This document shows, in pieces, positions 1-63,380 of a stretch of 64,000 nucleotides of DNA. The notes under the pieces were generated by a model that was not told where the DNA came from, ran no database searches, and was given only the letters and a program-made list of their open reading frames with translations. Source of the DNA: Sipunculus nudus (Eukaryota > Annelida > Sipuncula > Golfingiida > Sipunculidae); assembly GCA_026874595.1 (NCBI GenBank), contig CM049308.1:95094624-95158623 (forward strand). The letters are read 5' to 3'. A program made the position numbers and the translations under genes. The first letter of the stretch is position 1; each line of letters opens with the position of its first letter.

Positions 1-1409
1 ATCACCTGTCACTCAAACATACCAAATCAGACAAGGCTCACCTGTCCCTCTCACACACCAGATCAGATGATGGCTCACCTGTCCCTCTAACATACCAAAT
101 CAGACAAGGCTCATCTGTCCCTCTAACATACCAGATCAGACAAGGCTCACCTGTCCCTCTAACATACCAGATCAGACAAGGCTCACCTGTCCCTCTAACA
201 CACCAGATCAGACAAGGCCCACCTGTCCCCTAACATACCAGATCAGACAAGGCTCACCTGTCCCTCTAACTCACAAGATCAGACAAGGCTCACCTGTCCC
301 TCTAACTCACCAGATCAGACAAGTCTAACCTGTCCCTCTAATACACCAGATCAGACAAGGCTCACCTGTCCCTCTAACATTCCAGATCAGACAAGGCTCA
401 CCTGTCCCTCTAACATACCAGATCAGACAAGGCTCACCTGTCCCTCTTACACACCAGATTAGATGAGGCTCACCTGTCCCTCTAACATACCAGATCAGAC
501 AAGGCTCACCTGTCCCGCTTACACACCAGATTAGATGAGGCTCGCCTTTCCCTCTATCATACCAGATTAGACAAGGCTCACCTGTCCCTCTTACACACCA
601 GATTAGATGAGGCTCACCTGTCCCTCTAACACACCAGATCAGACAAGGCTCACCTGTCCCTCTAACACACCAGATTAGAGGAGGCTCACCTGTCCCTCTA
701 ACATACCAGATCAGACAAGGCTCACCTGTCCCTCTTACACACCAGATTAGATGAGGCTCACCTGTCCCTCTAACATACCAGATCAGACAAGGCTCACCTA
801 TCCCTCTAACATACCAGATCAGACAAGGCTCACCTGCCCCTCTTACACACCAGATCAGATGAGGCTCGCCTGTCCCTCTAACATACCAGATCAGACAAGG
901 CTCACCTGTCCCTCTTACACACCAGATTAGATGAGGCTCTCCTGTCCCTCTATCATACCAGATCAGACAAGGCTCACCTGTCCCTCTTACACACCAGATT
1001 AGATGAGGCTCACCTGTCCCTCTAACACACCAGATCAGACAAGGCTCACCTGTCCCTCTAACATACCAGATCAGACAAGGCTCACCTGTCCCTCTAACAC
1101 ACCAGATCAGACAAGGCTCACCTGTCCCTCTAACACACCAGATCAGACAAGGCTCACCTGTCCCTCTAACACACCAGATCAGACAAGGCCCACCTGTCCC
1201 TCTTACACAACAGATCAGACAAGGCCCACCTGTCCCTCTAACATACCAGATCAGACAAGGCTCACCTTTCCCTCTAACACACCAGATCAGACAAGGCTCA
1301 CCTGTCCCTCTAACACACCAGATCAGACAAGGCCCACCTGTCCCTCTTACACAACAGATCAGACAAGGCCCACCTGTCCCTCTTACACGACAGATCAGAT
1401 GAGGCTCAC
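1..1409 (-). repeat. 36-bp minisatellite carrying a splice donor, intron 11 of J-domain gene
   Basis: About 39 units of 36 bp. On the minus (transcript) strand each holds ACAG|GTGAGCC followed by a TGTCTGATCTGGTATG-like stretch. The array starts exactly at the real donor of exon 11 (CAGCAG|GTGAGCCTC) and leaves the window at base 1. Variants alternate TAACATACC/TTACACACC on the plus strand. The open frame on the plus strand here is a by-product of the 36-bp period. Confidence 0.93.
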
Positions 1410-4400
1410 CTGCTGTGCCTTTTCTTTACGACGTGCCTTTTTACTCTTCTTCTTGTGTGTGGATTTGGTGATGAATATGTCTGTAGTCGGAGCTCTGTCT
1501 TGCTGAGGCTCTGGTGGGAAACTGAATAAAGCAGAATAAATACAAGTGTATCACTTTGTGCCTGTCACAGTTAATGTTTAAGTAGTAGTTTAATACTTAC
1601 CGGCTTCCAATTTATTGCTGACTGAACCATCACAAAGGGAACTGCTGTTAGCATTCTCTTCAACTCACTTAATATTGTTATGTGTTTTTGAACAGGGACA
1701 TTTTGTATATGAGTGTGGAGGTTCAAAACAATTTAAATGAAGGTTTCCTAATTGGAGACTTAACTTGGTATCGTGTTTTAAGAAACCAAACAAACATCAG
1801 CTTCCTCTCATTGTTACCTTGTCAGAAGTTAATATTCAGGGAAGTCTTCTTTTTATAAGTCACAAATCAGAAGTAAAGCAGCCTCAAAACTTAATTTAAT
1901 ACATCATATCTACACAAAATAGCTAATACCTCTTTATCCCAGCATTCATTTGTTATTGCAACTAACATTAACATTAATACCACACATTGCAGACACAGAT
2001 ACAAGCACACACACAGACTTACCTGGCTTCTGTATGGCTGGGTGACTGTCTGGATGGATGGTGCTGAGAGTCCTTTGCTGCAGGGGGATTTACTTTAGTT
2101 AGTTGTGATGGGTTGGCTGTAGGGGGCGCTGACACCTGCTCAGCTTTAATCTGTTCACCGATGGCCGAGGCTTCCTGAAATCAACCAAATATATATAAAA
2201 ACTGCATGTGATATTAAATAAATATATCATATACACATACATATAGCTCTCTAAGTTGTAAACAAACATGATTTTTCATATTATTCTCTCATCCTGTACT
2301 GTGTTTGTGTATGTCTGTATATAGCTGGCTTACATCAAAGCGACACCTGTACCTATATCAGGTTCTGATCTTGTCACTTTAAGAATATAAATATTCACAC
2401 TCTACAAACAAAGAAAACAGCCTGGTGGAAAGTTTCCACTATAACTGTTCAAGTTATTCAGTTTGATATGATTTCAGCTCCTGTAATACTTTCAGTAGAA
2501 CTACCTTTTGTCTCCGGTACTGCTCTGCTTTCATCTGCTTTTTGGTCAGTTTCTTTGGCTTCTCCAGTGACTGCTCGTTGGCCTTCTTTTTAGCTCTCTA
2601 CAATCAAAAAAACCTGTAGACATTCTAACAGAAAAGAAGGCATTGTTTTTGTGTCTTTAGAATGAAAAAAGCAAAGGATGAAACAAAAACTAGAGCCATT
2701 TCTAATTACTGTAATGTTACCATTTCCTTCTGAAATGTAGTTTCCATGGTAGCCGTTTTATTCCTCCCAAACTACTTTAAAGATAACAACATGTCATGTG
2801 AGATGATATGGCAGCTTCACATGAATTAGGTGCGATACCAATTAGTGCCCTACTGAAGTACAATTATAGTATTTATAATTATACAAACTGCAGTAAATGA
2901 CTGAACAAAATGGTGTTTAACTCAAAATACAGATAAATATAAAGTCTGTAGGGTAAAAAACACCACTTAATCACACTGTCCAACTGTCCGCCCACCACAA
3001 GGGCACAGGAGAGATTACTGGGCACAAACTATTGAAAGTTCAGGTAATGACACGAGATGATTCATGTTAGTGGACTCCTACCCGTGTCCTCGCATTGTGT
3101 CTCTTCTTCGGGTCACGAGCTTGACTCCATTCTTCAAATGAGTGGAACTTTTTGAGCTATCAATTACAAAAAAATATATAGTTTATAACTGGTTTCCTCA
3201 AGAATTTATTAGAGAAATATAATAATTATAATACATTCCTAAGAAAATTTAAATCAATCAGATAGTTAAGACTGTCTTAGACTGTCAATTTTACTTGGAT
3301 TACATATAAAACTGAAATAAATTCCAATTAATTATTAATCACCATACCCAATATTTTTCCATGATTCTGAAATCCTTAAATATCAGGGATTTATCAGGGG
3401 ACACAGAAAACAATTAATACATTACTTATTACATCTTAAGCAAATTATCATATTTCCCTGTTTAACTTGGGAGATGCATTGTAACTAATTAGGTATGGTG
3501 TATCTACGGAGATCCACTGTATCTAGATGGAACCAACAGGTGAGACAGCTTGTATCATTAACATGACACATTACAAGTATGATCATATTGTTACAAAGAC
3601 ACTGTATTATTAACATGACACAAGTATGATCATATTGTTACAAAGACACTGTATTATTAACATGACACAAGTATGATCATATTGTTACAAAGACACTGTA
3701 TATTAACATGACACAAGTATGATCATATTGTTACAAAGACACTGTATATTAACATGACACAAGTATGATCATATTGTTACAAAGATACAGTGACATGACC
3801 TTAAGTATTGTTTTCACTCACATCTTCCTCAGTGAGCTTGATGTCATCAGCTCCCTCTTTCCTCCGTTTCTGTAATACAAGGATAAGTTATAACCACAGG
3901 TAACCCAATCAAACACCAGTCAGTAATACAAGGATTAGTCATAACTACAGGTAACCTCATTAAACACCAGTCAGTAATACAAGGATTAGTCATAACTACA
4001 GGTAACCCAATCAAACACCAGTCAGTAATACAAGGATTAGTCATAACTACAGGTAACCTCATCAAACACCAGTCAGTAATACAAGGATTAGTCATAACTA
4101 CAGGTAACCTCATTAAACACCAGTCAGTAATACAAGGATTAGTCATAACTACAGGTAACCTCATTAAACACCAGTCAGTAATACAAGGATTAGTCATAAC
4201 TACAGGTAACCTCATTAAACACCAGTCAGTAATACAAGGATTAGTCATAACTACAGGTAACCCAATCAAACACCAGTCAGTAATACAAGGATTAGTCATA
4301 ACTACAGGTAACCTCATCAAACACCAGTCAGTAATACAAGGATTAGTCATAACTACAGGTAACCTCATCAAACACCAGTCAGTAATACAAGGATTAGTCA

Positions 4401-7400
4401 TAACTACAGGTAACCTCATTAAACACCAGTCAGTAATACAAGGATTAGTCATAACTACAGGTAACCTAATCAAACACCAGTCAGTAATACAAGGATTAGT
4501 CATAACTACAGGTAACCCAATCAAACACCAGTCAGTAATACAAGGATTAGTCATAACTACAGGTAACCCAATCAAACACCAGTCATTAATACAAGGATTA
4601 GTCATAACTACAGGTAACCTCATCAAACACCAGTCAGTAATACATGAATAATCATGTTGACATAATTTCAGAGATATACAGAGATATCACTGTAAACATC
4701 TGGCTGGTGTTACTTACTTAGTATACAGAGACATTATAAATCATCTGGCTGGCATTACGTACTGAGTATACAGAGATATCATTGTAAATCATCTGGCTGG
4801 TGTTACTTACTGAGTATACAGAGAGAAATCATTATAAATCATCTGGCTGGTGTTACTTATTAAATAAAGAGAGATATCATTATAAATCATCTGGCTGGCA
4901 TTACTTATTGAGTATACAGAGATATCATTATAAATCATCTGGCTGGCATTACTTACTGAGTATACAGAGATATCATTATAAATCATCTGGCTGGTGTTAC
5001 TTGCTGAGTATAAAGAGATAAATCATCATAAATCATCTGGCTGGTGTTACTTACTAAATAAACAGAGATATCATTATAAATCATCTGGCTGGCGTTACTT
5101 ACTGAGTATACAGAGATATCATTATAAATCATCTGGCTGGCATTACTTACTGAATATACAGAGATATCATTATAAATCATCTGGCTGGCATTACTTACTG
5201 AGTATACAGAGATATCATAATAAATCATCTGGCTGGCATTACTTACTGAGTATACAGAGATATCATTATAAATCATCGGGGTGGCATTACTTACTGAGTA
5301 TACAGAGATATCATAATAAATCATCTGGCTGGCATTACTTACTGAGTATACAGAGATATCATTATAAATCATCGGGGTGGCATTACTTACTGAGTATACA
5401 GAGATATCATTATAAATCATCGGGGTGGCATTACTTACTGAGTATACAGAGATATCATAATAAATCATCTGGCTGGCATTACTTACTGAGTATACAGAGA
5501 TATCATTATAAATCATCGGGGTGGCATTACTTACTGAGTATACAGAGATATCATTATAAATCATCTGGCTGGCATTACTTACCGAGTATACAGAGATATC
5601 ATTATAAATCATCTGGCTGGCATTACTTACTGAGTATACAGAGATATCATTATAAATCATCTGGCTGGCATTACTTACTGAGTATACAGAGATATCATTA
5701 TAAATCATCTGGCTGGTGTTACTTACTGAGTATACAGAGATATCATTATAAATCATCTGGCTGGCATTACTTACTGAGTATACAGAGATATCATTATAAA
5801 TCATCTGGCTGGCATTACTTACTGAGTATACAGAGATATCATTATAAATCATCTGGCTGGCATTACTTACTGAGTATACAGAGATATCATTATAAATCAT
5901 CTGGCTGGCATTACTTACTGAGTATACAGAGATACCATTATAAATCATCGGGGTGGCAGTACACAGAGATATCATTATAAATCATCTGGCTGGCATTACT
6001 TACTGAGTATACAGAGATACCATTATAAATCATCTGGCTGGCGTTACTTACTGAGCATACAGAGAGAAATCATTATAAATCATCTGGCTGGTGTTTTTTA
6101 CTAAATAAACAGAGATATCATTAAAAATCATCTGGCTGGCATTACTTACTGAGTATACAGAGATATCATTATAAATCATCTGGCTGGCGTTACTTACTGA
6201 GCATACAGAGAGAAATCATTATAAATCATCTGGCTGGTGTTTTTTACTAAATCAACAGAGATATCATTAAAAATCATCTGGCTGGCGTTACTTACTGAGT
6301 ATACAGAGATATCATTATAAATCATCTGGCTGGCATTACTTACTGAATATACAGAGATATCATTATAAATCATCTGGCTGGCATTACTTACTGAGTATAC
6401 AGAGATACCATTATAAATCATCGGGGTGGCGTTACTTACTGAGTATACAGAGATATCATTATAAATCATCGGGGTGGCATTACTTACTGAGTATACAGAG
6501 ATATCATTATAAATCATCTGGCTGGCATTACTTACTGAGTATACAGAGATATCATTATAAATCATCTGGCTGGCATTACTTACTGAGTATACAGAGATAT
6601 CATTATAAATCATCTGGCTGGCATTACTTACTGAGTATACAGAGATACCATTATAAATCATCTGGCTGGCGTTACTTACTGAGTATAAAGAGATATCATT
6701 ATAAATCATCTGGCTGGCATTACTTACTGAGTATACGGAGATACCATTATAAATCATCTGGCTGGCATTACTTACTGAGTATAAAGAGAGATATCATTAT
6801 AAATCATCTGGCTGGCATTACTAACTGAGTATACAGAGATATCATTATAAATCATCTGGCTGGCATTACTTACTGAGTATAAAGAGAGATATCATTATAA
6901 ATCATCTTGCTGACATTACTTACTGAGTATACAGAGATACCATTATAAATCATTGGGGTGGCGTTACTTACTGAGTACACAGAGATATCATTATAAATCA
7001 TCTGGCTGGCATTACTTACTGAGTATACAGAGATATCATTATAAATCATCTGGCTGGCATTACTTACTGAGTATACAGAGATATCATTATAAATCATCTG
7101 GCTGGCGTTACTTACTGAGCATACAGAGAGAAATCATTATAAATCATCTGGCTGGTGTTTTTTACTAAATAAACAGAGATATCATTATAAATCATCTGGC
7201 TGGCATTACTTACTGAGTATACAGAGATACCATTATAAATCATCGGGGTGGCATTACTTACTGAGTACACAGAGATATCATTATAAATCATCTGGCTGGC
7301 ATTACTTACTGAGTATACAGAGATATCATTATAAATCCTCTGGCTGGCGTTACTTACTGAGTATACAGAGATATCATTATAAATTATCTGGCTGGCATTA

Positions 7401-10400
7401 CTTACTGAGTATACAGAGATATCATTATAAATCATCTGGCTGGCATTACTTACTGAGTATAAAGAGAGATATCATTATAAATCATCTTGCTGACATTACT
7501 TACTGAGTATACAGAGATACCATTATAAATCATCGGGGTGGCGTTACTTACTGAGTACACAGAGATATCATTATAAATCATCTGGCTGGCATTACTTACT
7601 TAGTATACAAAGATATCATTATAAATCATCTGGCTGGCGTTACTTACTGAGCATACAGAGAGAAATCATTATAAATCATCTGGCTGGTGTTTTTTACTAA
7701 ATAAACAGAGATATCATTATAAATCATCTGGCTGGCATTACTTACTGAGTATACAGAGATACCATTATAAATCATCGGGGTGGCATTACTTACTGAGTAC
7801 ACAGAGATATCATTATAAATCATCTGGCTGGCATTACTTACTGAGTATACAGAGATATCATTATAAATCCTCTGGCTGGCGTTACTTACTGAGTATACAG
7901 AGATATCATTATAAATTATCTGGCTGGCGTTACTTACTGAGTATACAGAGATATCATTATAAATCATCTGGCTGGCGTTACTTACTGAGTATACAGAGAT
8001 ATCATTATAAATCATCTGGCTGGCATTACTTACTGAGTATACAGAGATATCATTATAAATCATCTGGCTGGCGTTACTTACTGAGTATACAGAGATATCA
8101 TTATAAATCATCTGGCTGGCGTTACTTACTGAGTATACAGAGATATCATTATAAATCATCTGGCTGGCGTTACTTACTGAGTATACAGAGATATCATTAT
8201 AAATCATCTGGCTGGCGTTACTTACTGAGCATATAGAGAGAAATCATTATAAATCATCTGGCTGGTGTTTTTTACTAAATAAACAGAGATATCATTAAAA
8301 ATCATCTGGCTGGCATTACTTACTGAGTATACAGAGATATCATTATAAATCATCTGGCTGGCATTACTTACTGAGTATACAGAGATATCATTATAAATCA
8401 TCTGGCTGGTGTTACTTACTGAGTATACAGAGATATCATTATAAATCATGTGGCTGGTGTTACTGAGCATACAGAGAGAAATCATTATAAATCATCTGGC
8501 TGGTGTTTTTTACTAAATAGACAGAGATATCATTATAAATCATCTGGCTGGCATTACTTACTGAGTATACAGAGATACCATTATAAATCATCGGGGTGGC
8601 GTTACTTACTGAGTACACAGAGATATCATTATAAATCATCTGGCTCGCATTACTTACTGAGTATACAGAGAGATCATTATAAATCATCTGGCTGGCGTTA
8701 CTTACTGAGTATACAGAGATATCATTATAAATCATCTGGCTGGTGTTTTTTACTAAATAAACAGAGATATCATTATAAATCATCTGGCTGGCATTACTTA
8801 CTGAGTATACAGAGATACCATTATAAATCATCGGGGCGGCGTTACTTACTGAGTATACAGAGATACCATTATAAATCATCTGGCTGGCGTTACTTACTGA
8901 GCATACAGAGAGAAATCATTATAAATCATCTGGCTGGTGTTTTTTACTAAATAAACAGAGATATCATTAAAAATCATCTGGCTGGCATTACTTACTGAGT
9001 ATACAGAGATATCATTATAAATCATCTGGCTGGCGTTACTTACTGAGCATACAGAGAGAAATCATTATAAATCATCTGGCTGGTGTTTTTTACTAAATAA
9101 ACAGAGATATCATTAAAAATCATCTGGCTGGCGTTACTTACTGAGTATACAGAGATATCATTATAAATCATCTGGCTTGCATTACTTACTGAATATACAG
9201 AGATATCATTATAAATCATCTGGCTGGCATTACTTACTGAGTATACAGAGATACCATTATAAATCATCGGGGTGGCGTTACTTACTGAGTATACAGAGAT
9301 ATCATTATAAATCATCGGGGTGGCATTACTTACTGAGTATACAGAGATATCATTATAAATCATCTGGCTGGCCTTACTTACTGAGTATACAGAGATATCA
9401 TTATAAATCATCTGGCTGGCATTACTTACTGAGTATACAGAGATATCATTATAAATCATCTGGCTGGCATTACTTACTGAGTATACAGAGAAATCATTAT
9501 AAATCATCTGGCTGGTGTTACTTACTGAGTATACAGAGATATCATTATAAGTCATCTGGCTGGCATTACTTACTGAGTATACAGAGATATCATTATAAAT
9601 CATCTGGCTGGCATTACTTACTGAGTATACAAAGATATCATTATAAATCATCTGGCTGGCATTACTTACTGAGTATACAGAGATATCATTATAAATCATC
9701 TGGCTGGCATTACTTACTGAGTATACAGAGATATCATTATAAATCATCTGGCTGGCATTACTTACTGAGTATACAGAGATACCATTATAAATCATCTGGC
9801 TGGCGTTACTTACTGAGTATAAAGAGATATCATTATAAATCATCTGGCTGGCATTACTTACTGAGTATACGGAGATACCATTATAAATCATCTGGCTGGC
9901 ATTACTTACTGAGTATAAAGAGAGATATCATTATAAATCATCTGGCTGGCATTACTAACTGAGTATACAGAGATACCATTATAAATCATCTGGCTGGCAT
10001 TACTTACTGAGTATAAAGAGAGATATCATTATAAATCATCTTGCTGACATTACTTACTGAGTATACAGAGATACCATTATAAATCATCGGGGTGGCGTTA
10101 CTTACTGAGTACACAGAGATATCATTATAAATCATCTGGCTGGCATAACTTACTGAGTATACAGAGATATCATTATAAATCATCTGGCTGGCATTACTTA
10201 CTTAGTATACAGAGATATCATTATAAATCATCTGGCTGGCGTTACTTACTGAGTATACAGAGATATCATTATAAATCATCTGGCTGGTGTTACTTACTGA
10301 GCATACAGAGAGAAATCATTATAAATCATCTGGCTGGTGTTTTTTACTAAATGAACAGAGATATCATTAAAAATCATCTGGCTGGCATTACTTACTGAGT

Positions 10401-13400
10401 ATACAGAGATATCATTATAAATCATCTGGCTGGCATTACTTACTGAGTATACAGAGATATCATTATAAATCATCTGGCTGGTGTTACTTACTGAGTATAC
10501 AGAGATATCATTATAAATAATCTGGCTGGTGTTACTTACTAAGCATACAGAGAGAAATCATTATAAATCATCTGGCTGGTGTTTTTTACTAAATAAACAG
10601 AGATATCATTATAAATCATCTGGCTGGCATTACTTACTGAGTATACAGAGATACCATTATAAATCATCGGGGTGGCATTACTTACTGAGTACACAGAGAT
10701 ATCATTATAAATCATCTGGCTGGCATTACTTACTGAGTATACAGAGATATCATTATAAATCCTCTGGCTGGCGTTACTTACTGAGTATACAGAGATATCA
10801 TTATAAATCATCTGGCTGGCGTTACTAACTGAGTATACAGAGATATCATTATAAATCATCTGGCTGGCGTTACTTACTGAGTATACAGAGATATCATTAT
10901 AAATCATCTGGCTGGCATTACTTACTGAGTATACAGAGATACCATTATAAATCATCGGGGTGGCGTTACTTACTGAGTATACAGAGATATCATTATAAAT
11001 CATCGGGGTGGCATTACTTACTGAGTATACAGAGATATCATTATAAATCATCTGGCTGGCCTTACTTACTGAGTATACAGAGATATCATTATAAATCATC
11101 TGGCTGGCATTACTTACTGAGTATACAGAGATATCATTATAAATCATCTGGCTGGCATTACTTACTGAGTATACAGAGAAATCATTATAAATCATCTGGC
11201 TGGTGTTACTTACTGAGTATACAGAGATATCATTATAAGTCATCTGGCTGGCATTACTTACTGAGTATACAGAGATATCATTATAAATCATCTGGCTGGC
11301 ATTACTTACTGAGTATACAAAGATATCATTATAAATCATCTGGCTGGCATTACTTACTGAGTATACAGAGATATCATTATAAATCATCTGGCTGGCATTA
11401 CTTACTGAGTATACAGAGATATCATTATAAATCATCTGGCTGGCATTACTTACTGAGTATACAGAGATACCATTATAAATCATCTGGCTGGCGTTACTTA
11501 CTGAGTATAAAGAGATATCATTATAAATCATCTGGCTGGCATTACTTACTGAGTATACGGAGATACCATTATAAATCATCTGGCTGGCATTACTTACTGA
11601 GTATAAAGAGAGATATCATTATAAATCATCTGGCTGGCATTACTAACTGAGTATACAGAGATACCATTATAAATCATCTGGCTGGCATTACTTACTGAGT
11701 ATAAAGAGAGATATCATTATAAATCATCTTGCTGACATTACTTACTGAGTATACAGAGATACCATTATAAATCATCGGGGTGGCGTTACTTACTGAGTAC
11801 ACAGAGATATCATTATAAATCATCTGGCTGGCATTACTTACTTAGTATACAGAGATATCATTATAAATCATCTGGCTGGCATTACTTACTGAGTATACAG
11901 AGATATCATTATAAATCATCTGGCTGGTGTTACTTACTGAGTATACAGAGATATCATTATAAATCATCTGGCTGGTGTTACTTACTGAGTATACAGAGAT
12001 ATCATTATAAATCATCTGGCTGGTGTTACTTACTGAGTATACAGAGATATCATTATAAATAATCTGGCTGGTGTTACTTACTAAGCATACAGAGAGAAAT
12101 CATTATAAATCATCTGGCTGGTGTTTTTTACTAAATAAACAGAGATATCATTATAAATCATCTGGCTGGCATTACTTACTGAGTATACAGAGATACCATT
12201 ATAAATCATCGGGGTGGCATTACTTACTGAGTACACAGAGATATCATTATAAATCATCTGGCTGGCATTACTTACTGAGTATACAGAGATATCATTATAA
12301 ATCCTCTGGCTGGCGTTACTTACTGAGTATACAGAGATATCACTATAAATCATCTGGCTGGCGTTACTAACTGAGTATACAGAGATATCATTATAAATCA
12401 TCTGGCTGGCGTTACTTACTGAGTATACAGAGATATCATTATAAATCATCTGGCTGGCATTACTTACTGAGTATACAGAGATATCATTATAAATCATCTG
12501 GCTGGCGTTACTTACTGAGTATACAGAAGATCTTTATAAATCATCTGGCTGGTGTTTTTTACTAAATAAACAGAGATATCATTATAAATCATCTGGCTGG
12601 CATTACTTACTGAGTATACAGAGACACATTATAAATCATCGGGGTGGCGTTACTTACTGAGTATACATAGATACCATTATAAATCATCTGGCTGGCGTTA
12701 CTTACTGAGCATACAGAGAGAAATCATTATAAATCATCTGGCTGGTGTTTTTTACTAAATAAACAGAGATATCATTAAAAATCATCTGGCTGGCATTACT
12801 TACTGAGAATACAGAGATATTATTATAAATCATCTGGCTGGCGTTACTTACTGAGCATATAGAGAGAAATCATTATAAATCATCTGGCTGGCGTTACTTA
12901 CTGAGTATACAGAGATATCATTATAAATCATCTGGCTGGCGTTACTTACTGAGCATATAGAGAGAAATCATTATAAATCATCTGGCTGGTGTTTTTTACT
13001 AAATAAACAGAGATATCATTAAAAATCATCTGGCTGGCATTACTTACTGAGTATACAGAGATATCATTATAAATCATCTGGCTGGCATTACTTACTGAGT
13101 ATACAGAGATATCATTATAAATCATCTGGCTGGTGTTTTTTACTAAATAAACAGAGATATCATTATAAAACATCTGGCTGGCATTACTTACTGAGTATAC
13201 AGAGACACATTATAAATCATCGGGGTGGCGTTACTTACTGAGTATACAGAGATACCATTATAAATCATCTGGCTGGCGTTACTTACTGAGCATACAGAGA
13301 GAAATCATTATAAATCATCTGGCTGGTGTTTTTTACTAAATAAACAGAGATATCATTAAAAATCATCTGGCTGGCATTACTTACTGAGTATACAGAGATA

Positions 13401-21580: not shown

Positions 21581-21622
<42 letters not shown>

Positions 21623-23118: not shown

Positions 23119-23190
<72 letters not shown>

Positions 23191-40311: not shown

Positions 40312-40360
<49 letters not shown>

Positions 40361-54100: not shown

Positions 54101-57100
54101 ATATACACACATGCTTGTCAGACATAACATTTATAACTGTTAGAAATACTGTCAAGTCTGTTCAATATTATCACTCACAATGCATGGGTTATTTTAATAA
54201 GATCTGATTTTGCTTTAGAAAATCACCATGTTTATGAAATGAAATAAATACTGTACCTCTGAACACATTAGTAAGATCTTGGCCAATTCAGGATCGTTAG
54301 GTTTCAGGTGAGCGTGTATGAGATCAGCATAATACTCTGCAGACCCCCCATCGCCACCGCCACCACCACCTGGTGGCAAAAACAGAGAGGATCAACTGAC
54401 AACTGATACCACATATGAGGAACAAGATAAGGTATACACATCATGCATCAAACTAAAAAACAACATAGATTATCAGACCAAGCTTTGTACAATATGATTT
54501 GACTAAAAATGTCTTGGTATTTAAAAACAAATTTAAATAAAAAGTATTTTAAAACAAACATCACCAATACCAAGTCAGTTAAGCAAAGTAGTCTACTCAT
54601 CTATCTCTGGAAGGGGTGGGGTATTAGTTTGGTGCTCTACCGGTCCACCTAACAAAACTTATGGACCAGTTTGGTCATCTACTAGTCTTCCTACTAAGAT
54701 TTTTGACCAATTTGGTGGTCTACTAGTCTACAAAGAAAGATTCATAGACCAGTTACTGGTCTACTAGTCTACCCAGTATGACTCATGGCCAGTTTAATGG
54801 TCCACTAGTCAACCTACTAAGACTCATGAACCAGTTTGTTCTACTGGTTTACCTTCCAAGACTCATAAACCAGTTTGATCTACTGGTCCATCTACCAAGA
54901 CTCATGAACCAGTTTGGTCTAATGGTACACCTGCCAAGACTCATGAACCAGTTTGGTCTACTGGTCCACATGCCAAGACTCATGAACCAGTCTGGTCTAC
55001 TGGTCCATTTACCAAGACCCATGAACCAGTTTGGTCTAATGGTCCACTTACCAAGTCTAATTAACAGTTTGGTCTACTGGTCCAACTATCAAGAATTTTG
55101 AACAGTTTGGTCAACTGGTCCAACTACCAAGACTCATGAACAAGGTTGGTCTACGTATGTACCTACCAAGTCTCATAAACAGTTTGGTCTACTGGTCCAC
55201 CTACAAAGAATTATGAACCAGTTTGATCTACTTGTCCATCTACAAAGACTCATGAACCAGTTTTGTCTAATGGTCAACCTACCAAGACTGATAAACCAGT
55301 TTGGTCTACTGGTCCAACTATCAAGTTTCATGACAGTTTGGTCTACTGGTCCAGCTACCAAGACTAATAAACAGTTTGGTCTACTGGTCTACCTACAAAG
55401 ACTCATGAACAGTTTGGTCTATTGGTGTACCTACAAAGACTAATGAACAGTTTGGTCTAGTGGTCCAACTCTAAAGACTCATGAATAATTTGGTCTACTG
55501 GTCCAACTATTAAGACTTATGAACAGTTGGGTCTACTGATCCACCTACCAAGACTCATAAACATTTTGGTCTACTGGTCCACCTACCAAGACTCATGAAC
55601 ATTTTGGTCTACTGGTCCACCTACCAAGACTCATGAATAGTTTGGTCTACTGATCCATCTACCAAGACTCATAAATAGTTTGGTCTACCAGTCCACCTAC
55701 CAAGACTCGTGAACAGTTTGGTCTACTGGTCCCCCTACCAAGACTCGTGAATAGTTTGGTCTACTGGTCCACCTACCAAGACTCATGAACAGTTTGGTCT
55801 ACTGGTCCACCTAAAAAGAGTCATGAACAGTTTAGTCTACTGGTCCACCTACCAAATCCCATGAATCAGTTTGGTCTACTTGTGTACCTACCAAGAATTA
55901 ATAGATTATTTTTTGCTTACTTACCCATGTTCTGTACAGCTTTGATGAAGTTTTTAGAGCAGCCATCTGTCTTCATGGCACTCGTTATGTCTTCCCCTGA
56001 CAACTACAAACATGAAAAAAAATCAAGTTTTACATAACTCATGTTTTGTAATTCACACCATTTTGACACATGTCTTTCTGTCATAATTTATGTGTGGACT
56101 TTCAGTACCATACTAGCAACCTTGCAGACCAAGATTTAGTCCTCAACTTTACTTACACATCTGTAATGGTCTCTTGTCTTGAGAGGTATTAAGATTGTCA
56201 TGACCAAAGGTAAATGGGAGACAGGTAAACATGATGAAAGGTCAACCCAACTTAAGGTCAATGAGAGACAGGTAAAACCTGACTAAAAGTCAACGGGAAA
56301 CAGGTAAAACCTGACTAAAGGTCAAAGGGAGACAGATAAAACATGACTTAAGGTCAACAGGAGACAGATAAAACATGACTACAGGTCAATCAGAGACAGG
56401 TTAAACATGACAAAAGGTTAACAGGAGACGGGTAAAACATGACTTAAGGTAAACGGGAGACAGGTAAAACCTGACTAAAGGTCCATGGGAGACAGGTAAA
56501 ACATAACTAAAGGTCACAGTAGACAGGTAAAACATGACTAAGGGTATTTGGGAGACAGGTAAAACATGAATAAAGGTCAATGGAAGACATAAAACATGAC
56601 TGAAGGTTTATGGGAGACAGGTAAAACATGATTAAAGGTCAACAGGAGACAGGTAAATCATGACTTATGTCAACAGGAGACAGATAAAACATGACTAAAG
56701 GTAAATGAGAGGCACGTTAAACATGATTAAAGGTCAATGGGAGACAGATGAATCATGACTTAAGGTAAATTCAATGACAGGTAAAACAAGACTAAAGGTT
56801 AACGGGAGACAGGTAAAACATGACTAAAGGTCAACTGGAGAAAGGTAAAACATAACTAACGGTCAACGATGACAGGTAAAACATGACTAAAGGTCTACGG
56901 GAGACAGGTAAAACCTGATAAAAGGTCATCGGGAGACAGGTAAAACCTGACTAGAGGTCAATGGGAGACAGGTAAAACATGACTAAAGGTCAACGGGAGA
57001 CAGGTAAAACATGACTAAAGGTCAACGGGAGACAGGTAAAACATGACTAAAGGTCAATGGAAGACAGGTAAAACATGACTAAAGGTCAACGGGAGACAGG

Positions 57101-60100
57101 TAAAACCTGACTAGAGGTCAATGGGAGACAGGTAAAACATGACTAAAGGTCAATGGGAGACAGGTAAAACATGACTAAAGGTCAATGGGAGACAGGTAAA
57201 ACCTGACTAAAGGTCAACGGGAGACAGGTAAAACATGACTAAAGGTCAACGGGAGACAGGTAAAACATTACTAAAGGTAAATGGGAGACAGGTAAAACAT
57301 GACTAAAGGTCAACGGGAGACAGGTAAAACATGACTAAAGGTCAACGGGAGACAGGTAAAACATGACTAAAGGTCAACGGGAGACAGGTAAAACATGACT
57401 AAAGGTCTACGGGAGACAGGTAAAACATGACTAAAGGTCAATGGAAGACATAAAACATGACTGAAGGTTTATGGGAGACAGGTAAAACATGATTAAAGGT
57501 CAAAAGGAGACAGGTAAATCATGACTTATGTCAACAGGAGACAGATAAAACATGACTAAAGGTAAATGAGAGGCACGTTAAACATGATTAAAGGTCAATG
57601 GGAGACAGATGAATCATGACTTAAGGTAAATTCAATGACAGGTAAAACAAGACTAAAGGTCAATGGGAGACAGGTAAAACATGACTAAAGGTCAATGGGA
57701 GACAGATAAAACCTGACTAAAGGTCAATGGGAGACAGGTAAAACATGACTAAAGGTCAACGGGAGACAGGTAAAACCTGATAAAAGGTCATCGGGAGACA
57801 GGTAAAACCTGACTAGAGGTCAATGGGAGTCAGGTAAAACATGACTAAAGGTCAACGGGAGACAGGTAAAACATGACTAAAGGTCAACGGGAGACAGGTA
57901 AAACATGACTAAAGGTCAATGGGAGACAGGTAAAACATGACTAAAGGTCAACAGGAGACAGGTAAAACCTGACTAGAGGTCAATGGGAGACAGGTAAAAC
58001 ATGACTAAAGGTCAATGGGAGACAGATAAAACATGACTAAAGGTCAATGGGAGACAGGTAAAACATGACTAAAGGTCAATGGGAGACAGGTAAAACCAGA
58101 CTAAAGGTCAACGGGAGACAGGTAAAACATGACTAAAGGTCAACGGGAGACAGGTAAAACATGACTAAAGGTCAACGGGAGACAGGTAAAACCTGACTTA
58201 AGGTCAATGGGAGACAGGTAAAACCTGACTTAAGGTCAATGGGAGACAGGTAAAACCTGACTAAAGGTCAATGGGAGACAGGTAAAACATGACTAAAGGT
58301 CAATGGGAGACAGGTAAAACATGACTAAAGGTAAATGGGAGACAGGTAAAACCTGACTAAAGGTCAATGGGAGACAGATAAAACCTGACTAAAGGTCAAT
58401 GGGAGACAGATAAAACATGACTAAAGGTCAACGGGAGACAGGTAAAACATGACTAAAGGTCAACGGGAGACAGGTAAAACATGACTAAAGGTAAACGGGA
58501 GACAGGTAAAACATGACTAAAGGTAAACGGGAGACAGGTAAAACATGACTAAAGGTCAACGGGAGACAGGTAAAACCTGACTAGAGGTCAATGGGAGACA
58601 GGTAAAACATGACTAAAGGTCAATGGGAGACAGGTAAAACATGACTAAAGGTCAACGGGAGACAGGTAAAACATGACTAAAGGTCAACAGGAGACAGGTA
58701 AAACATGACTAAAGGTCAACGGGAGACAGGTAAAACCTGACTAGAGGTCAACGGGAGACAGGTAAAACATGACTAATGGTCAATGGGAGACAGGTAAAAC
58801 ATGACTAAAGGTCAATGGGAGACAGGTAAAACATGACTGAAGGTCAATGGGAGACAGGTAAAACATGACTAAAGGTCAATGGGAGACAGGTAAAACATGA
58901 CTAAAGGTCAATGGGAGACAGGTAAAACATGACTAAAGGTCAATGGGAGACAGGTAAAACATGACTAAAGGTCAACGGGAGACAGGTAAAGGTCTACGGG
59001 AGACAGGTAAAACCTGACTAAAGGTCAACGGGAGACAGATAAAACATGACTAAAGGTCAACGGGAGACAGGTAAAACCTGACTAAAGGTCAACGGGAGAC
59101 AGGTAAAACATGACTAAAGGTCAACGGGAGACAGGTAAAACATGACTAAAGGTAAATGGGAGACAGGTAAAACATGACTAAAGGTCAATGGGAGACAGGT
59201 AAAACATGACTAAAGGTCAATGGGAGACAGGTAAAACCTGACTAGAGGTCAATGGGAGACAGGTAAAACATGACTAAAGGTCAATGGGAGACAGGTAAAA
59301 CATGACTAAAGGTCAATGGGAGACAGGTAAAACCTGACTAAAGGTCAACGGGAGACAGGTAAAACCTGACTAAAGGTCAACGGGAGACAGGTAAAACATG
59401 ACTAAAGGTCAACGGGAGACAGGTAAAACCTGACTAGAGGTCAATGGGAGACAGGTAAAACATGACTAAAGGTAAATGGGAGACAGGTAAAACATGACTA
59501 AAGGTAAATGGGAGACAGGTAAAACATGACTAAAGGTCAATGGGAGACAGGTAAAACCTGACTAAACGTCAATGGGAGACAGGTAAAACATGACTAAAGG
59601 TCAATGGGAGACAGGTAAAACATAACTAAAGGTCAACGGGAGACAGGTAAAACCTTACTAAAGGTCAACGGGGGACAGGTAAAACATGACTAAAGGTCAA
59701 CGGGAGACAGGTAAAACATGACTAAAGGTCAACGGGAGACAGGTAAAACATGACTAAAGGTAAATGGGAGACAGGTAAAACATGACTAAAGGTCAATGGG
59801 AGACAGGTAAAACCTGACTAAAGGTCAACGGGAGACAGGTAAAACATGACTAAAGGTAAATGGGAGACAGGTAAAACATGACTAAAGGTCAACGGGAGAC
59901 AGGTAAAACATGACTAAAGGTCAACGGGAGACAGGTAAAACATGACTAAAGGTCAATGGGAGACAGGTAAAACATGACTAAAGGTCAATGGGAGACAGGT
60001 AAAACATGACTAAAGGTCAATGGGAGACAGGTAAAACATGACTAAAGGTCAATGGGAGACAGGTAAAACCTGACTAAAGATCAATGGGAGACAGATAAAA

Positions 60101-63100
60101 CATGACTTAAGGTCAACAGGAGACAGATAAAACATGACTACAGGTCAATCAGAGACAGGTAAAACATGACAAAAGGTTAACAGGAGACGGGTAAAACATG
60201 ACTTAAGGTAAACGGGAGACAGGTAAAACCTGACTAAAGGTCCATGGGAGACAGGTAAAACATAACTAAAGGTCACAGTAGACAGGTAAAACATGACTAA
60301 GGGTATTTGGGAGACAGGTAAAACATGAATAAAGGTCAATGGAAGACATAAAACATGACTGAAGGTTTATGGGAGACAGGTAAAACATGATTAAAGGTCA
60401 ACAGGAGACAGGTAAATCATGACTAATGTCAACAGGAGACAGATAAAACATGACTTAAGGTAAATGAGAGGCAGGTTAAACATGATTAAAGGTCAATGGG
60501 AGACAGATGAATCATGACTTAAGGTAAATTCAATGACAGGTAAAACAAGACTAAAGGTTAACGGGAGACAGGTAAAACATGACTAAAGGTAAACTGGAGA
60601 AAGGTAAAACATAACTAACGGTCAACAGGAGACAGGTAAAACATGACTAAAGGTCTACAGGAGACAGGTAAAACCTGATTGAAGGTCATCGGGAGACAGG
60701 TAAAACCTGACTAAAGGTCAATGGGAGACAGGTAAAACGAATAAAGGTCGATGGAAGACATAAAACATGATTGAAGGTTTATGGGAGACAGGTAAAACAT
60801 GACTAAAGGTCAACTGGAGAAAGGTAAAACATGACTAAAGGTCAACAGGAGACAGGTAAAACATGACTAAAGGTCAACTGGAGAAAGGTAAAACATATCT
60901 AACGGTAAACAGGAGACAGGTAAAACATGACTAAAGGTCTACGGGAGACAGGTAAAACCTGCTTAAAGGTCATCGAGAGACAGATAAAACCTGACTAAAG
61001 GTCAATGGGAGACAGGTAAAACATGACTAAAGGTCAACGGGGGACAGGTAAAACATGACTAAAGGTCAACGGGGGACAGGTAAAACATGACTAAAGGTCT
61101 ACGGGAGACAGGTAAAACATGACTAAAGGTCAATGGGAGACAGGTAAAACATGACTAAAGGTCAATGGGAGACAGGTAAAACATGACAAAAGGTCAATGG
61201 GAGACAGGTAAAACATGACTAAAGGTCAATGGGAGACAGGTAAAACATGACTAAAGATCAACGGGAGACAGGTAAAACATGACTAAAGGTCAACCGGAGA
61301 AAGGTAAAACATAACTAACGGTCAACAGGAGACAGGTTACACATGACTAAAGGTCTACGGGAGACAGGTAAAACCTGATTAAAGGTCTACGGGAGACAGG
61401 TAAAACATGACTAAAGGTCAATGGGAGACAGGTAAAACATGACTAAAGGTCAATGGGAGACAGGTAAAACATGACTAAAGGTCAATGGGAGACAGGTAAA
61501 ACATGACTAAAGGTCAACGGGAGACAGGTAAAACCTGACTAAAGGTCAACGGGGGACAGGTAAAACATGACTCAAGATCAACAGGAGACAGGTAAAACAT
61601 GACTAAGGGTCAACAGGAGACAGGTAAAACCTTACTAAAGGTCAATGGGAGACAGGTAAAACCTGACTAGAGGTCAATGGGAGACAGGTTAAACATGACT
61701 AAAGGTCAATGGGAGACAGGTTAAACATGACTAAAGGTCAACGGGAGACAGGTTAAACATGACTAAAGGTCAATGGGAGACAGGTAAAACCTGACTAAAG
61801 GTCAATGGGAGACAGGTAAAACATGACTAAAGGTCAATGGGAGACAGGTAAAACCTGACTAAAGGTCAACGGGAGACAGGTAAAACATGACTAAAGGTCA
61901 ACAGGAGACAGGTAAAACCTTACTAAAGGTCAATGGGAGACAGGTAAAACCTGACTAGAGGTCAATGGGAGACAGGTTAAACATGACTAAAGGTCAATGG
62001 GAGACAGGTTAAACATGACTAAAGGTCAACGGGAGACAGGTTAAACATGACTAAAGGTCAATGGGAGACAGGTAAAACCTGACTAAGATCAATGGGAGAC
62101 AGATAAAACATGACTAAAGGTCAACAGGAGACAGATAAAACATGACTACAGGTCAACCAGAGAGAGATAAAACATGACAAAAGGTTAACAGGAGACGGGT
62201 AAAACATGACTAAAGGTTTATGGGTAATAGGTAGAATTACACAGGTAAACAAAATCTATTGAAATGAAGTGTTATTGTCTCTTTTAAAACATTGGGCTGC
62301 CATATCTTGGGTAAGACCAATGTACCTTTAACAAAACATTTCATATCTATGATCAATTGTGACAGAATTTTGTTATTAACCATAAGAAAACCTTTTACTT
62401 ATCCTTTTAATACCTTTTTAAGGATAGCACCATTATCTATTGACACTACTTTAGGAGATTAAATTTAAAAAATCCATAATAAATTATTTGGAATTAACAC
62501 AAAATGAAGAAAATCATCTTAATGAATGCTTGTAGATGAGCTACCTGTTTGTAAGCCTTGAATACTGCCTGCATGTGAGCACTGCTGCGTTCTGACAGCA
62601 GCTTCATGAACACACCTTTTGGGTCTGTGAACCTGCCTTCCCCAGCCTGTACAATAACAAGAACTCTTGATGTGAGAAAATGAGACTAAACACAAGACTG
62701 TAATTAAAATGGTGGTAATAATTATAAGTTGAACAGGAAAGGACACTTTATATCTCCGAAGATACACATGCTTCAGGTACAAATCTCATTGCAATGGAGA
62801 CAATTTATCCGATATTAAACAGTTCCATTTTAAGCAACACACAAGTGCAAAATCTAAATAATTTATTATAGGTATTATTTTTTTTTTCATTTGTATTATT
62901 TTAATTTATTATATCTGTGGAATAAACCAATTTATTTATGAATCAGATATCACTTTTTTTCATTTATAATGATGTTCCATTAAACCTCAGCCTTCAGATA
63001 ACATATTCTGATTAGATTTTACTTCTGAATCAAATTCACTATGAAGCACATGTATGCATGTGAAAAAAGTAAATAACTGAACTAAACAATATCTAATTGA

Positions 63101-63380
63101 AAATACTTTAACGGTGCATATACTGACTAAACTGTTTGAACTGTACAAATACTAACTGAAATTACTTCAACTGTACCAATACTAACTGATAATACTTAAA
63201 CAGTACAAATATTAACTGAAAATACTTGAACAGTACACATATTAACCTAAACTCTTTCAACTGTACAAATAATAACTGAAACTAATTATACATGTACAAA
63301 TACCGACTTACATCAATAAGAGCCTGAGCATCAGCCTCAGCTTGTTCTCTGTCCACACGATCTGACTCTGGGCGGCCTCC
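45068..63380 (-). CDS. Annexin gene with duplicated core (annexin A6-like), 13 exons, 5' end outside window
   Basis: Exons 63312-63380, 62545-62646, 55925-56003, 54257-54369, 53693-53824, 53178-53271, 52291-52466, 48825-48995, 48390-48572, 47545-47646, 46088-46163, 45739-45851 and 45068-45187 join in frame into 509 residues and TAA. Residues 1-83 and 84-165 are the last two annexin repeats of a first core; 166-205 is a Lys/Gln-rich linker; 206-509 is a complete four-repeat core. Type II calcium loops are seen in repeats I (GWGTDE 222-227), II (GLGTNE 294-299) and IV (GLGTKD 453-458) of the second core. Repeat III and both visible repeats of the first core lack the GxGT loop. Annexins bind acidic phospholipid with calcium. 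The first core's repeats I and II should lie right of base 64000. Confidence 0.93.
45739..45851 (-). CDS. Annexin exon (repeat IV, second core)
   Basis: Acceptor ATCTTCAG, donor GTAAGT. It encodes VAVQDPIEFYARRLNDAMAG, then LGTKDTQLIRIIVSRSE. It has a clear GLGT calcium loop and the IIVSRSE signature. Confidence 0.95.
46088..46163 (-). CDS. Annexin exon (end of repeat III, second core)
   Basis: Acceptor GCTTCAG, donor GTAAGT. It encodes LSGKSLEEAIKKSMSGDAED then AYLNL, including the SGDAE acidic cap. Confidence 0.93.
46190..47150 (-). repeat. Degenerate 36-40 bp tandem repeat with GTAAGTG, annexin intron
   Basis: About 24 uneven units. On the transcript strand the core is TTGCTCCACCTGTAAGTG then TGTCATTAAGGAC. 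Many units keep a GTAAGTG donor-like core. The array fills most of the intron between exons 47545-47646 and 46088-46163 and reaches within about 25 bp of the acceptor. Confidence 0.88.
47545..47646 (-). CDS. Annexin exon (repeat III, second core)
   Basis: Acceptor GTGTCAG, donor GTAAGA. It encodes DGETVIELNDEVFRDIICKR then NKAQVKATAQEYEK. VIELND replaces the GTDE calcium loop. Confidence 0.93.
48390..48572 (-). CDS. Annexin exon (repeat II end and repeat III start, second core)
   Basis: Acceptor TCTGCAG, donor GTACAG. It encodes 61 residues from ELNAISTQYKKSYDRDLQ through the DTSGDFQELL cap to DQKLAKEDAQKLYK, the inter-repeat connector. Confidence 0.95.
48825..48995 (-). CDS. Annexin exon (repeat I end and repeat II, second core)
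   Basis: Acceptor TGGCAG, donor GTGACT. It encodes DLTEELKSELSGDFEELMMA with the acidic GDFEE cap, then MREAVKGLGTNEATLIGIL of repeat II with its calcium loop. Confidence 0.95.
49612..51016. mobile_element. 1.4-kb DNA transposon with perfect 27-bp inverted ends
   Basis: 49612-49638 (TACCGTAAAATCTCCACTTA then AAACCGC) is the exact reverse complement of 50990-51016. The outer TA can be read as a TA target duplication, as for Tc1/mariner/pogo-type elements, leaving 25-bp termini starting CCGTAAAATC. Extra TGCGGTTTTAA copies lie inside both ends. The longest internal frames (60-87 codons) resemble no transposase, so it is non-autonomous. It lies in the annexin intron 48996-52290. Confidence 0.8.
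51118..51222. repeat. Two-copy direct repeat
   Basis: GTCAGAATATTCCTATCATA followed by AAACAAAGTCAAGAA occurs twice, starting near 51125 and 51179, about 54 bp apart. Confidence 0.8.
51505..52290 (-). repeat. 32-bp minisatellite containing exon end plus splice donor, annexin intron
   Basis: About 25 units of 32 bp. On the transcript strand each contains AGGAAAAATATGATAAA|GTAAGTCCCTCTACA or the variant with AATTATGATAAA and CCTCTATG. The bases left of the bar equal the last 17 bases of the adjoining exon (52291-52466), so the repeat unit includes coding sequence. Confidence 0.95.
52291..52466 (-). CDS. Annexin exon (repeat I, second core)
   Basis: Acceptor TTTAG, donor GATAAA|GTAAGT. It encodes KGKGTVKEASNFNPDDDVTK, then the canonical calcium loop MKGWGTDEQPLIDIL and the YQEKYDK end. 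The final 17 bases are copied in every unit of the adjoining 32-bp array. Confidence 0.95.
53178..53271 (-). CDS. Annexin exon (linker between cores)
   Basis: Acceptor TTATAG, donor GTGAGA. It encodes 31 residues of Lys, Gln and Ser (KQDDKSKKQGTSQQ to KSQAKASK). This low-complexity linker would join the two membrane-binding cores flexibly. Confidence 0.85.
53693..53824 (-). CDS. Annexin exon (repeat IV end, first core)
   Basis: Acceptor TCCCTCAG, donor GTAAGT. It encodes QGDMVAIKRAYKKKYKVDLT and on to VNKPKPG, 44 residues. It corresponds to the D..I...Y...Y...L segment ending the first core. Confidence 0.9.
54257..54369 (-). CDS. Annexin exon (Gly run and repeat IV, first core)
   Basis: Acceptor GCCACCAG, donor GTACAG. 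It begins with a Gly run (GGGGGDGG, residues 84-91) and continues SAEYYADLIHAHLKPNDPEL then AKILLMCSE. It fits helix A/B of repeat IV with a degenerate loop. Confidence 0.88.
54640..55905 (-). repeat. 38-bp tandem repeat, annexin intron
   Basis: About 33 units. On the plus strand the core is TTTGGTCTACTGGTCCACC followed by TACCAAGACTCATGAACAG. On the transcript strand this gives CTTGGTAGGTGGACC, with a donor-like GTAGGT. The array starts about 30 bp after the donor of exon 55925-56003. Divergence grows towards 54640. Confidence 0.9.
55925..56003 (-). CDS. Annexin exon (end of repeat III, first core)
   Basis: Acceptor TTTGTAG, donor GTAAGT. It encodes LSGEDITSAMKTDGCSKNFI then KAVQNM. It is the SG.DI helix D/E part; the usual acidic cap ExSGD is replaced by KTDGCS. 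Confidence 0.88.
56200..62225. repeat. 6-kb 32-bp minisatellite, annexin intron
   Basis: About 190 units of 32 bp, plus-strand consensus GGTCAATGGGAGACAGG then TAAAACATGACTAAA. The plus strand (antisense to the annexin gene) has GACAG|GTAAAA, a donor-like motif. The transcript strand has a CCCATTGACCTTTAG acceptor-like stretch. Larger blocks within the array are duplicated (offsets 861 and 3759 bp). Confidence 0.95.
62545..62646 (-). CDS. Annexin exon (repeat III, first core)
   Basis: Acceptor TTGTACAG, donor GTAGCT. It encodes AGEGRFTDPKGVFMKLLSER, then SSAHMQAVFKAYKQ. It matches helices A-C of repeat III, but FTDP stands in place of the GTDE calcium loop. Confidence 0.92.
62647..63119. other. 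Annexin intron without recognised features
   Basis: AT-rich sequence with T runs, upstream of the 30-bp array. No exon or repeat could be supported. Confidence 0.5.
63120..63312 (-). repeat. 30-bp tandem repeat starting at an annexin donor
   Basis: About 6 units of 30 bp; plus-strand core ACTGTACAAATACTAACTGA then AAATACTT. On the transcript strand the first unit is the true donor (GAT|GTAAGTCGGTATTTGTAC) and later units read CAGTTAGTATTTGTAC. Confidence 0.8.
63312..63380 (-). CDS. Annexin, first exon visible (start of repeat III, first core)
   Basis: Acceptor TCTCAG, donor GTAAGTC. It encodes 23 residues starting GGRPESDRVDREQAEADAQ. The VD...A..DAQ.L pattern opens repeat III in annexins. 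Confidence 0.85.

What the first reader, a model, noticed from the sequence alone, without database searches (positions are those of the whole stretch)
1..63312. Splice-donor minisatellites: intronic arrays seeded at authentic 5' splice sites
Four arrays begin at a real exon donor and repeat it in transcript orientation: 1-1409 (ACAG|GTGAGCC, exon 11), 4660-18677 (TACTCA|GTAAGT, exon 6), 51505-52290 (GATAAA|GTAAGT, annexin repeat I exon) and 63120-63312 (donor-like CAGTTAGT units). Two others (46190-47150 with TGTAAGTG; 54640-55905 with TTGGTAGGT) carry donor-like cores in the same sense. Unit sizes and sequences differ, so they arose independently in two genes. This suggests a process that amplifies exon-intron junctions, or selection for U1-binding arrays. 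Possible effects: redundant donors, U1 sponging, protection from premature polyadenylation, or splice-site choice drift.
Basis: partly seen in the sequence, partly recalled or inferred. Interest (0 to 1): 0.92.

Follow-up and report, generated by a model that had tools for sequence, protein, structure and literature searches.

The report
Minisatellites grown from splice junctions
In this animal genome, probably a mollusc's, short DNA repeats have grown out of the borders between exons and introns, so that single introns carry up to hundreds of copies of their own splice site; repeats of the same kind are known from a few amphioxus genes.

Summary
The arrays are real. Two minus-strand genes lie here: a J-domain gene (J1-J11) and an annexin (A1-A13). 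Three of the four claimed donor arrays reach an authentic donor (J11, J6, A7). The fourth stops 8 nt short and is not donor-like by score. Of the two 'others', one is an acceptor-side array and one stops 28 nt short of a donor.

In the same genome I found five more junction-spanning arrays in annexin and myosin-like genes, three at donors and two at acceptors; units carry 8-41 nt of exon. Totals: 6 donor, 5 acceptor.

These fit 'mirages', minisatellites spanning exon-intron borders, described in amphioxus. New here: a non-chordate (probable mollusc), several genes, and extreme size. The J11 array runs at least 12.4 kb with 222 sense donors as strong as the authentic one; J6 has 244 in 14 kb.

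Best explanation: mostly unselected tandem duplications that happened to straddle junctions, with the exon-proximal copy remaining the working site. Junction contact exceeds uniform seeding modestly (9 of 22 against 5.2 expected, P about 0.02). Selection for U1 binding is not supported. Which copy is spliced needs RNA.

The parts
1410..1521 (-). exon J11 of the J-domain gene; donor GCACAGCAG|GTGAGCC at its low end
   Evidence: gene model with open frame and canonical splice sites; the gene carries Pfam DnaJ, 6.9e-19
1..1412 (-). donor minisatellite, 36 bp x 39 in the window; continues through all 11 kb fetched to the left of the window (L061, L069)
   Evidence: TRF; 222 sense donors at least as strong as the authentic one in 12,409 bases, 0 antisense
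3870..4644 (-). acceptor minisatellite, 51 bp x 15, units ending ..TTGTATTAC(AG) at the J7 exon
   Evidence: TRF (3872-4644); cyclic alignment reaches +1 nt of the exon, shuffle P 0.43
4675..18683 (-). donor minisatellite, 48 bp x 291, repeats the J6 donor and the last 6 exon bases (TACTCA|GTAAGT)
   Evidence: TRF; +6 nt into exon, shuffle P 0.033; 244 sense donors of authentic strength, 0 antisense
18678..18757 (-). exon J6
   Evidence: gene model
3822..3869 (-). exon J7
   Evidence: gene model
19553..19653 (-). acceptor minisatellite, 11 bp x 9 (TGTTGATTTCA), abutting the J4 acceptor TTGATTTCAG|ATGAAG
   Evidence: TRF; cyclic alignment ends 1 nt from the exon
46164..47152 (-). acceptor-side minisatellite, 38 bp x 26, degenerate first copy reaches the A11 exon; units carry CCTGTAAGT in sense
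   Evidence: TRF (46183-47152); +2 nt into exon, shuffle P 0.033; donor score 7.1, shuffle P 0.038
51491..52311 (-). donor minisatellite, 32 bp x 26; unit contains the last ~21 exon bases of A7 plus GTAAGT
   Evidence: TRF; +21 nt into exon, shuffle P 0.017; 18 sense donors of authentic strength, 0 antisense
52291..52466 (-). exon A7 of the annexin
   Evidence: gene model; Pfam Annexin 2.8e-80 for the gene
54659..55896 (-). minisatellite, 38 bp, stopping 28 nt from the A3 donor
63087..63303 (-). minisatellite, 30 bp, stopping 8 nt from the A1 donor; not donor-like by score
3573..3785 (-). minisatellite, 46 bp, 36 nt (TRF) from the J7 donor; counter-example
19655..19943 (-). interior minisatellite, 32 bp x 9, 103 nt upstream of the J4 acceptor; counter-example
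56250..62224 (-). interior minisatellite, 32 bp x 187; donor-like CAGGTAAAA on the antisense (+) strand; counter-example

Best explanation
These are 'mirages': minisatellites seeded by a short tandem duplication that straddled, or lay right beside, an exon-intron border, at donors and acceptors alike. Duplication at a border is tolerated because the exon-proximal copy still splices and everything beyond it is removed with the intron. The array then grows and shrinks by unequal exchange or slippage, mostly without selection, until it dominates the intron. The extra donors or acceptors are passengers that the spliceosome has to ignore. Shown: junction contact, exon bases inside the units, private units, donor and acceptor cases in several genes. 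Inferred: tolerance by splicing, the growth mechanism, neutrality, and use of the exon-proximal copy (supported by reading frame at three donors, not by RNA).
For: Exon bases inside the units at donors: A7 21 nt (P 0.017) and J6 6 nt (P 0.033); L011 36 nt (0 of 100 shuffles), L051 14 nt (P 0.04), L058 8 nt (P 0.05). At acceptors: L063 41 nt (0 of 100), L058/L001 8 nt (P 0.02). Acceptor arrays are about as common as donor arrays (5 and 6). Units are private to each junction in the sequence held. Read in frame past the first donor, a stop comes after 4 codons at J11, 11 at A7 and 25 at J6, so regular use of downstream donors would cut the protein short. Donor positions are not specially conserved in the two largest arrays. 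Random seeding in short introns already predicts about 5 of the 9 junction contacts.
Against: Junction contact exceeds the uniform-seeding expectation about 1.7-fold: 9 of 22, expected 5.2, P 0.017; P 0.063 if A11 is not counted. Some junction preference may therefore exist. Exon overlap at J11 (+3, P 0.23), J7 (+1, P 0.43) and J4 (-1) is not significant by itself; those arrays could simply abut. Four smaller arrays rank higher in donor conservation. No RNA, no population data, no related species.
Confidence: 0.72

Rival explanations
1. A process preferentially amplifies exon-intron junctions (for example breaks or slippage linked to transcription, R-loops, nucleosome edges or bound splicing factors), so junctions are hot spots for minisatellite birth.
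For: 9 of 22 arrays touch a junction against 5.2 expected under uniform seeding in collapsed introns, P 0.017; both ends of the J6-J7 intron are amplified separately; exon inclusion up to 36 and 41 nt.
Against: The excess is under twofold, depends on how A11 is scored (P 0.063 without it) and on assumed pre-expansion intron lengths (P 0.012 to 0.028 for J11 lengths of 1000 to 100); outside the window alone 3 of 8, expected 1.3, P 0.07.
Confidence: 0.3
2. Selection maintains arrays of U1-binding sites (redundant donors, U1 sponging, protection from premature polyadenylation).
For: 222 and 244 sense donors of authentic strength in J11 and J6 with none antisense; donor hexamer ranks 1-9 among rotations in four smaller arrays.
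Against: 5 acceptor arrays are not explained; the donor hexamer is not more conserved in the two largest arrays (rank 19 of 36 and 31 of 48); the 187-copy array carries its donor-like motif antisense. Sense bias of donor-seeded arrays follows from the seed alone. The J6 sites are weak by score (5.7; only 1 site in that array reaches the gene-pair median of 8.2).
Confidence: 0.07
3. The arrays are insertions of dispersed satellites or intron-making elements (introner-like) that carry splice sites.
For: Other repeats here do look dispersed: the ~340-bp repeat at 37110-38361 resembles by eye the ~337-bp repeat in L067.
Against: Each of 16 units matched only its own array in the sequence held; units contain that gene's own exon bases. 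A genome-wide DNA search of a unit did not complete.
Confidence: 0.04
4. Recursive or stochastic splicing through the repeats: units with AG|GT act as dual-specific splice sites, so the intron is removed in steps or alternative isoforms arise.
For: J11 units (ACAG|GTGAGC) and L051 units (ACAG|GTCAGT) are AG|GT sites; human UBC and other tandem-repeat genes splice at dual-specific sites (PMC10809524, passages).
Against: Other donor arrays lack AG|GT (J6 CTCA|GTAAGT, A7 AAA|GTAAGT, L058 TCT|GTAAGT); no RNA; by eye no strong pyrimidine tract in the J11 unit.
Confidence: 0.12

Closest known systems
'Mirages' of amphioxus (Adh3; globins BflGb6 and BflGb9, PMC3087553; PGBD5 and TnC mentioned in PMC3902484)
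   Same: [quoted passage not shown] reported not to interfere with regular splicing; mechanism unclear (passages).
   Different: Here a non-chordate, probably a mollusc, several unrelated genes, units 11-92 bp, and up to 291 to about 348 copies over 12-14 kb; the two BflGb6 haplotypes have 6 and 3 units. Splicing was checked there by RT-PCR, not here. I did not see copy numbers for Adh3.
Human internal tandem repeats at exon-intron boundaries in segmental duplications (PMC2812944)
   Same: Minisatellites (about 30-bp units) at exon-intron boundaries that change gene structure (passages).
   Different: About 4 copies on average, primate duplicates, linked there to new introns and alternative transcripts.
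Dual-specific splice sites in tandem repeats, e.g. human UBC (PMC10809524)
   Same: Tandem repeats whose units carry a splice site (passages).
   Different: There the introns lie within the repeats, which in UBC encode ubiquitin; here the arrays lie in the intron and copy its border.
C. elegans CeRep25B intronic minisatellite (PMC4039745)
   Same: Intronic minisatellite associated with alternative splicing (passages).
   Different: A 24-base repeat family in chromosomal clusters; the passages describe no seeding at the splice junction it neighbours.

Membership tests
mirages (minisatellites spanning exon-intron boundaries) | tandem repeat, minisatellite-sized unit, several copies | tested here: met
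   TRF: units 11-92 bp, 2.6 to 291 copies (348 units over the longer J11 stretch)
mirages (minisatellites spanning exon-intron boundaries) | repeat spans an exon-intron boundary (exon bases inside the unit) | tested here: met
   Of 11 junction-touching arrays, 7 have exon overlap of at least 6 nt beyond shuffled exons at P <= 0.05: J6, A7, L011, L051, L058d, L063a, L058a/L001. Not significant for J11, J7, J4; A11 only +2 nt (P 0.033).
mirages (minisatellites spanning exon-intron boundaries) | occurs at both 5' and 3' boundaries | tested here: met
   6 donor-touching (J11, J6, A7, L058d, L011, L051) and 5 acceptor-touching (J7, J4, A11, L058a, L063a) arrays
mirages (minisatellites spanning exon-intron boundaries) | regular splicing undisturbed | not testable with these tools
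   no RNA; reading frame at J11, A7 and J6 favours the exon-proximal copy
mirages (minisatellites spanning exon-intron boundaries) | length polymorphism or somatic instability | not testable with these tools
   a single assembly
U1-site arrays kept by selection | donor core more conserved than the rest of the unit | tested here: inconclusive
   not met in the two largest arrays (J11 19/36, J6 31/48); ranks 4/32, 9/31, 1/36 (ties), 1/55 in four smaller ones
U1-site arrays kept by selection | limited to donors in sense | tested here: not met
   5 acceptor arrays; better donor-like motif antisense in the 187-copy array, the J7 acceptor array and the 46-bp array
introner-like or dispersed satellite insertions | the same unit at several loci | tested here: not met
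   16 units matched only their own array in the window and L001-L068; genome-wide search not answered

The most novel reading that the evidence does not exclude
This genome has a process that preferentially amplifies DNA straddling splice junctions, at both intron ends, and can rebuild whole introns out of hundreds of copies of their own splice site, so that one pre-mRNA offers more than 450 donors of authentic strength.
Probability: 0.3. Interest if true: 0.78.

Novelty: new member of a known kind. Interest (0 to 1): 0.55.

Why it matters
Textbook splice-site choice assumes few competitors. Here one transcript carries at least 222 sense donors at least as strong as the authentic J11 donor and 244 as strong as the (weaker) J6 donor (recalled score matrix), a natural test of how the exon-proximal site wins. 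It also indicates that 'mirages', whose reported cases I saw only for amphioxus, are neither a chordate oddity nor small, and that border-straddling duplication is a route by which introns grow and exon ends could drift. If junctions prove to be hot spots genome-wide, the birth of minisatellites would be tied to gene structure.

Tried and rejected
Donor-only seeding: rejected because of 5 acceptor arrays. Selection on donor cores: tested by column conservation, not consistent. Dispersed unit: not seen in held sequence. Long open frames over the arrays: the four ORFs of at least 300 aa lie on the 36- and 48-bp arrays and follow from periods divisible by 3; the J6 frame closes 25 codons beyond the exon. 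Naming the species: highest identities of the annexin core among the 120 of 3873 hits listed are 56% (an unnamed protein and Nucella lapillus) and 50% (Lottia gigantea); the J-gene search listed 120 of 1118 hits, and the few named were bacterial DnaJ; no species claimed. Two-copy repeat next to an L058 exon (4999-5098, 2.0 copies): left out of the counts. L058 exon ending KAMS instead of the usual annexin KAMK (recalled) could be array-driven: not tested.

Dropped before the counts: arrays of period under 10 or over 100 and arrays under 2.5 copies. The list grew as I noticed omissions: one search used 18 arrays (9 touching, P 0.006), one search added three low-copy arrays (21, P 0.011), one search added the interior 39-bp array of L060 (22, P 0.017). 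A11 counts as touching by alignment although TRF ends it 19 nt short. Collapsed intron lengths of J11 (assumed 300), L058a, L062 and L063b are approximate.
Full report
What the window holds. The window is C3:95094624-95158623 of a genome of 1,426,538,692 bases in 153 contigs. Two genes lie on the minus strand. The left one carries a J domain (Pfam DnaJ 6.9e-19), with 11 modelled exons (J1-J11) between 34427 and 1410. The right one is an annexin (Pfam 2.8e-80; closest solved structures annexin VI), with 13 modelled exons (A1-A13) between 63380 and 45066. Both run on beyond the window (J at its 3' side, the annexin at its 5' side). Exons were set by open frame and canonical AG/GT borders (the acceptor end of A12 was moved to 45851, in agreement with the open frame). 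The annexin core is most like mollusc proteins among the named hits with the highest identity (56% Nucella lapillus, 50% Lottia). I call the host a probable mollusc, no more.

TRF finds all of them. J11 (36 bp), J6 (48 bp x 291) and A7 (32 bp x 26) do run up to an authentic donor and repeat it in sense. The 30-bp array by A1 stops 8 nt short and has no donor-like score (1.9, shuffle P 0.42). The 38-bp array by A3 stops 28 nt short. The 38-bp array at 46183-47152 is on the acceptor side of A11, which its degenerate first copy reaches.

Two arrays abut acceptors: 51 bp x 15 ending in the J7 acceptor, and 11 bp x 9 ending in the J4 acceptor. The intron between J6 and J7 (14,808 bases) is almost wholly made of two arrays, one grown from its donor and one from its acceptor. 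Several arrays touch nothing, and the largest of these (56250-62224, 187 copies) carries a good donor-like motif on the antisense strand (7.4, shuffle P 0.002, against -3.0 in sense).

Exon bases inside the units. I aligned the cyclic consensus of each array through its junction and compared the reach into the exon with shuffled exon sequence. In the window the reach is +21 nt at A7 (P 0.017), +6 at J6 (P 0.033), +2 at A11 (P 0.033), +3 at J11 (P 0.23), +1 at J7 (P 0.43) and -1 at J4 (60 shuffles each).

Beyond the window. Annexin and myosin-head exons of the same genome were sampled: 25 annexin matches, 5 of them in the window, and 30 loci out of 75 myosin matches listed, itself a lower bound, plus 116.5 kb of chosen stretches. 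Five further junction-spanning arrays appeared. Donor: L011 (annexin, 55 bp, 36 exon nt, 0 of 100 shuffles), L051 (myosin-like, 36 bp x 28, 14 nt, P 0.04), L058 (annexin, 31 bp x 40, 8 nt, P 0.05). Acceptor: L063 (myosin-like, 82 bp x 5.8, 41 nt, 0 of 100) and L058/L001 (annexin, 92 bp x 2.6, 8 nt, P 0.02). In all, 6 donor and 5 acceptor junctions.

Extreme size. The J11 array continues through all 11 kb fetched to the left. The 12,409 bases held contain 222 sense donors at least as strong as the authentic one and none antisense; the J6 array has 244 as strong as its own, weaker donor (score 5.7; only one reaches the median 8.2 of the 23 donors modelled) and none antisense (recalled weight matrix).

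Is the junction special? Random placement over pooled intronic sequence is rejected strongly, and random points in each collapsed intron moderately (P 0.006-0.010). Those nulls ignore that a seed has the length of a unit and, for the pooled one, that these introns were short before the arrays grew. With unit-long uniform seeding in array-collapsed introns the window alone is unremarkable (5-6 of 14 against 3.5-3.8 expected; P 0.05-0.25). Over the window, L056-L060 and L062-L068, 9 of 22 arrays (period 10-100, at least 2.5 copies) touch a junction against 5.2 expected: P 0.017, or 0.063 if A11 is not counted; without the J6-J7 intron 7 of 20 against 3.2, P 0.017. Outside the window alone (before L060 was added) it is 3 of 8 against 1.3, P 0.07. 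So there is at most a modest preference, and chance seeding explains much of it.

Is there selection on the donors? If extra donors were useful, their core should be better kept than the rest of the unit. In the two largest arrays it is not: J11 rank 19 of 36 over 348 units, J6 31 of 48 over 289. In four smaller arrays the rank is 4/32, 9/31, 1/36 (with ties) and 1/55, so weak local constraint stays possible. Acceptor arrays speak against a U1-only story. Sense orientation of donor-seeded arrays follows from the seed.

Which copy works? Read in frame beyond the first donor, a stop comes after 4 codons at J11, 11 at A7 and 25 at J6, so the protein needs the exon-proximal donor there. The other junctions were not tested this way. 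Use of inner copies in a minority of transcripts cannot be excluded.

What is known. Tandem repeats spanning exon-intron boundaries were named mirages in amphioxus Adh3 and found in globins BflGb6 and BflGb9, at both 5' and 3' boundaries, with 6 and 3 units in the two BflGb6 haplotypes and apparently undisturbed splicing (PMC3087553, passages; PMC3902484, passage). The first report, on Adh, I recall only; a look-up for it found nothing held. Human minisatellites at exon-intron boundaries can create introns (PMC2812944, passages), and dual-specific sites occur in tandem-repeat genes (PMC10809524, passages). An abalone gene with a 27-bp intronic minisatellite is described without junction seeding in the passages I saw (PMC6905558). 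Paper searches showed me no report of mirages under that name outside cephalochordates; only open-licence papers are held, I saw the top of each list, and I read passages, not whole papers.

Verdict. Real, and ordinary in kind but not in degree: mirages in a probable mollusc, several genes, both intron ends, up to hundreds of copies. The amplification of junctions is.

Noticed in passing
window 37110-38361; L067 3294-5776: A ~340-bp tandem repeat lies between the two genes and a ~337-bp tandem repeat that looks alike by eye lies in a myosin-like gene: probably a dispersed satellite or mobile element, not junction-seeded.
   Followed up: partly
window 24410-25491: A 179/359-bp tandem repeat lies in the J2-J3 intron; just after it come GGACGGAAGGACGGAC simple repeats and a 'gccactttgtggc' palindrome-like tail, which looks like a mobile element.
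   Followed up: no
L060 1245-5000: A 39-bp x 96 array lies upstream of the window's annexin exons, about 365 nt from the nearest putative exon; interior, no donor-like score in sense (0.9).
   Followed up: partly
L058 4999-5098: A two-copy 48-bp repeat begins a few tens of bases after the GTAAGT donor of an annexin exon: a possible very young array.
   Followed up: partly
L058, exon at 7816-7926: The exon ends ATGTCT (KAMS), identical to the array unit, where annexins usually have KAMK (recalled): the array may have overwritten the last codon.
   Followed up: no
window about 49615-51015 (A7-A8 intron): A stretch of about 1.4 kb begins with 'ccgtaaaatctccacttaaaaccgc' and ends with its inverted copy 'gcggttttaagtggagattttacgg', seen by eye: probably a transposable element with inverted ends, about 480 nt from the A7 array.
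   Followed up: no
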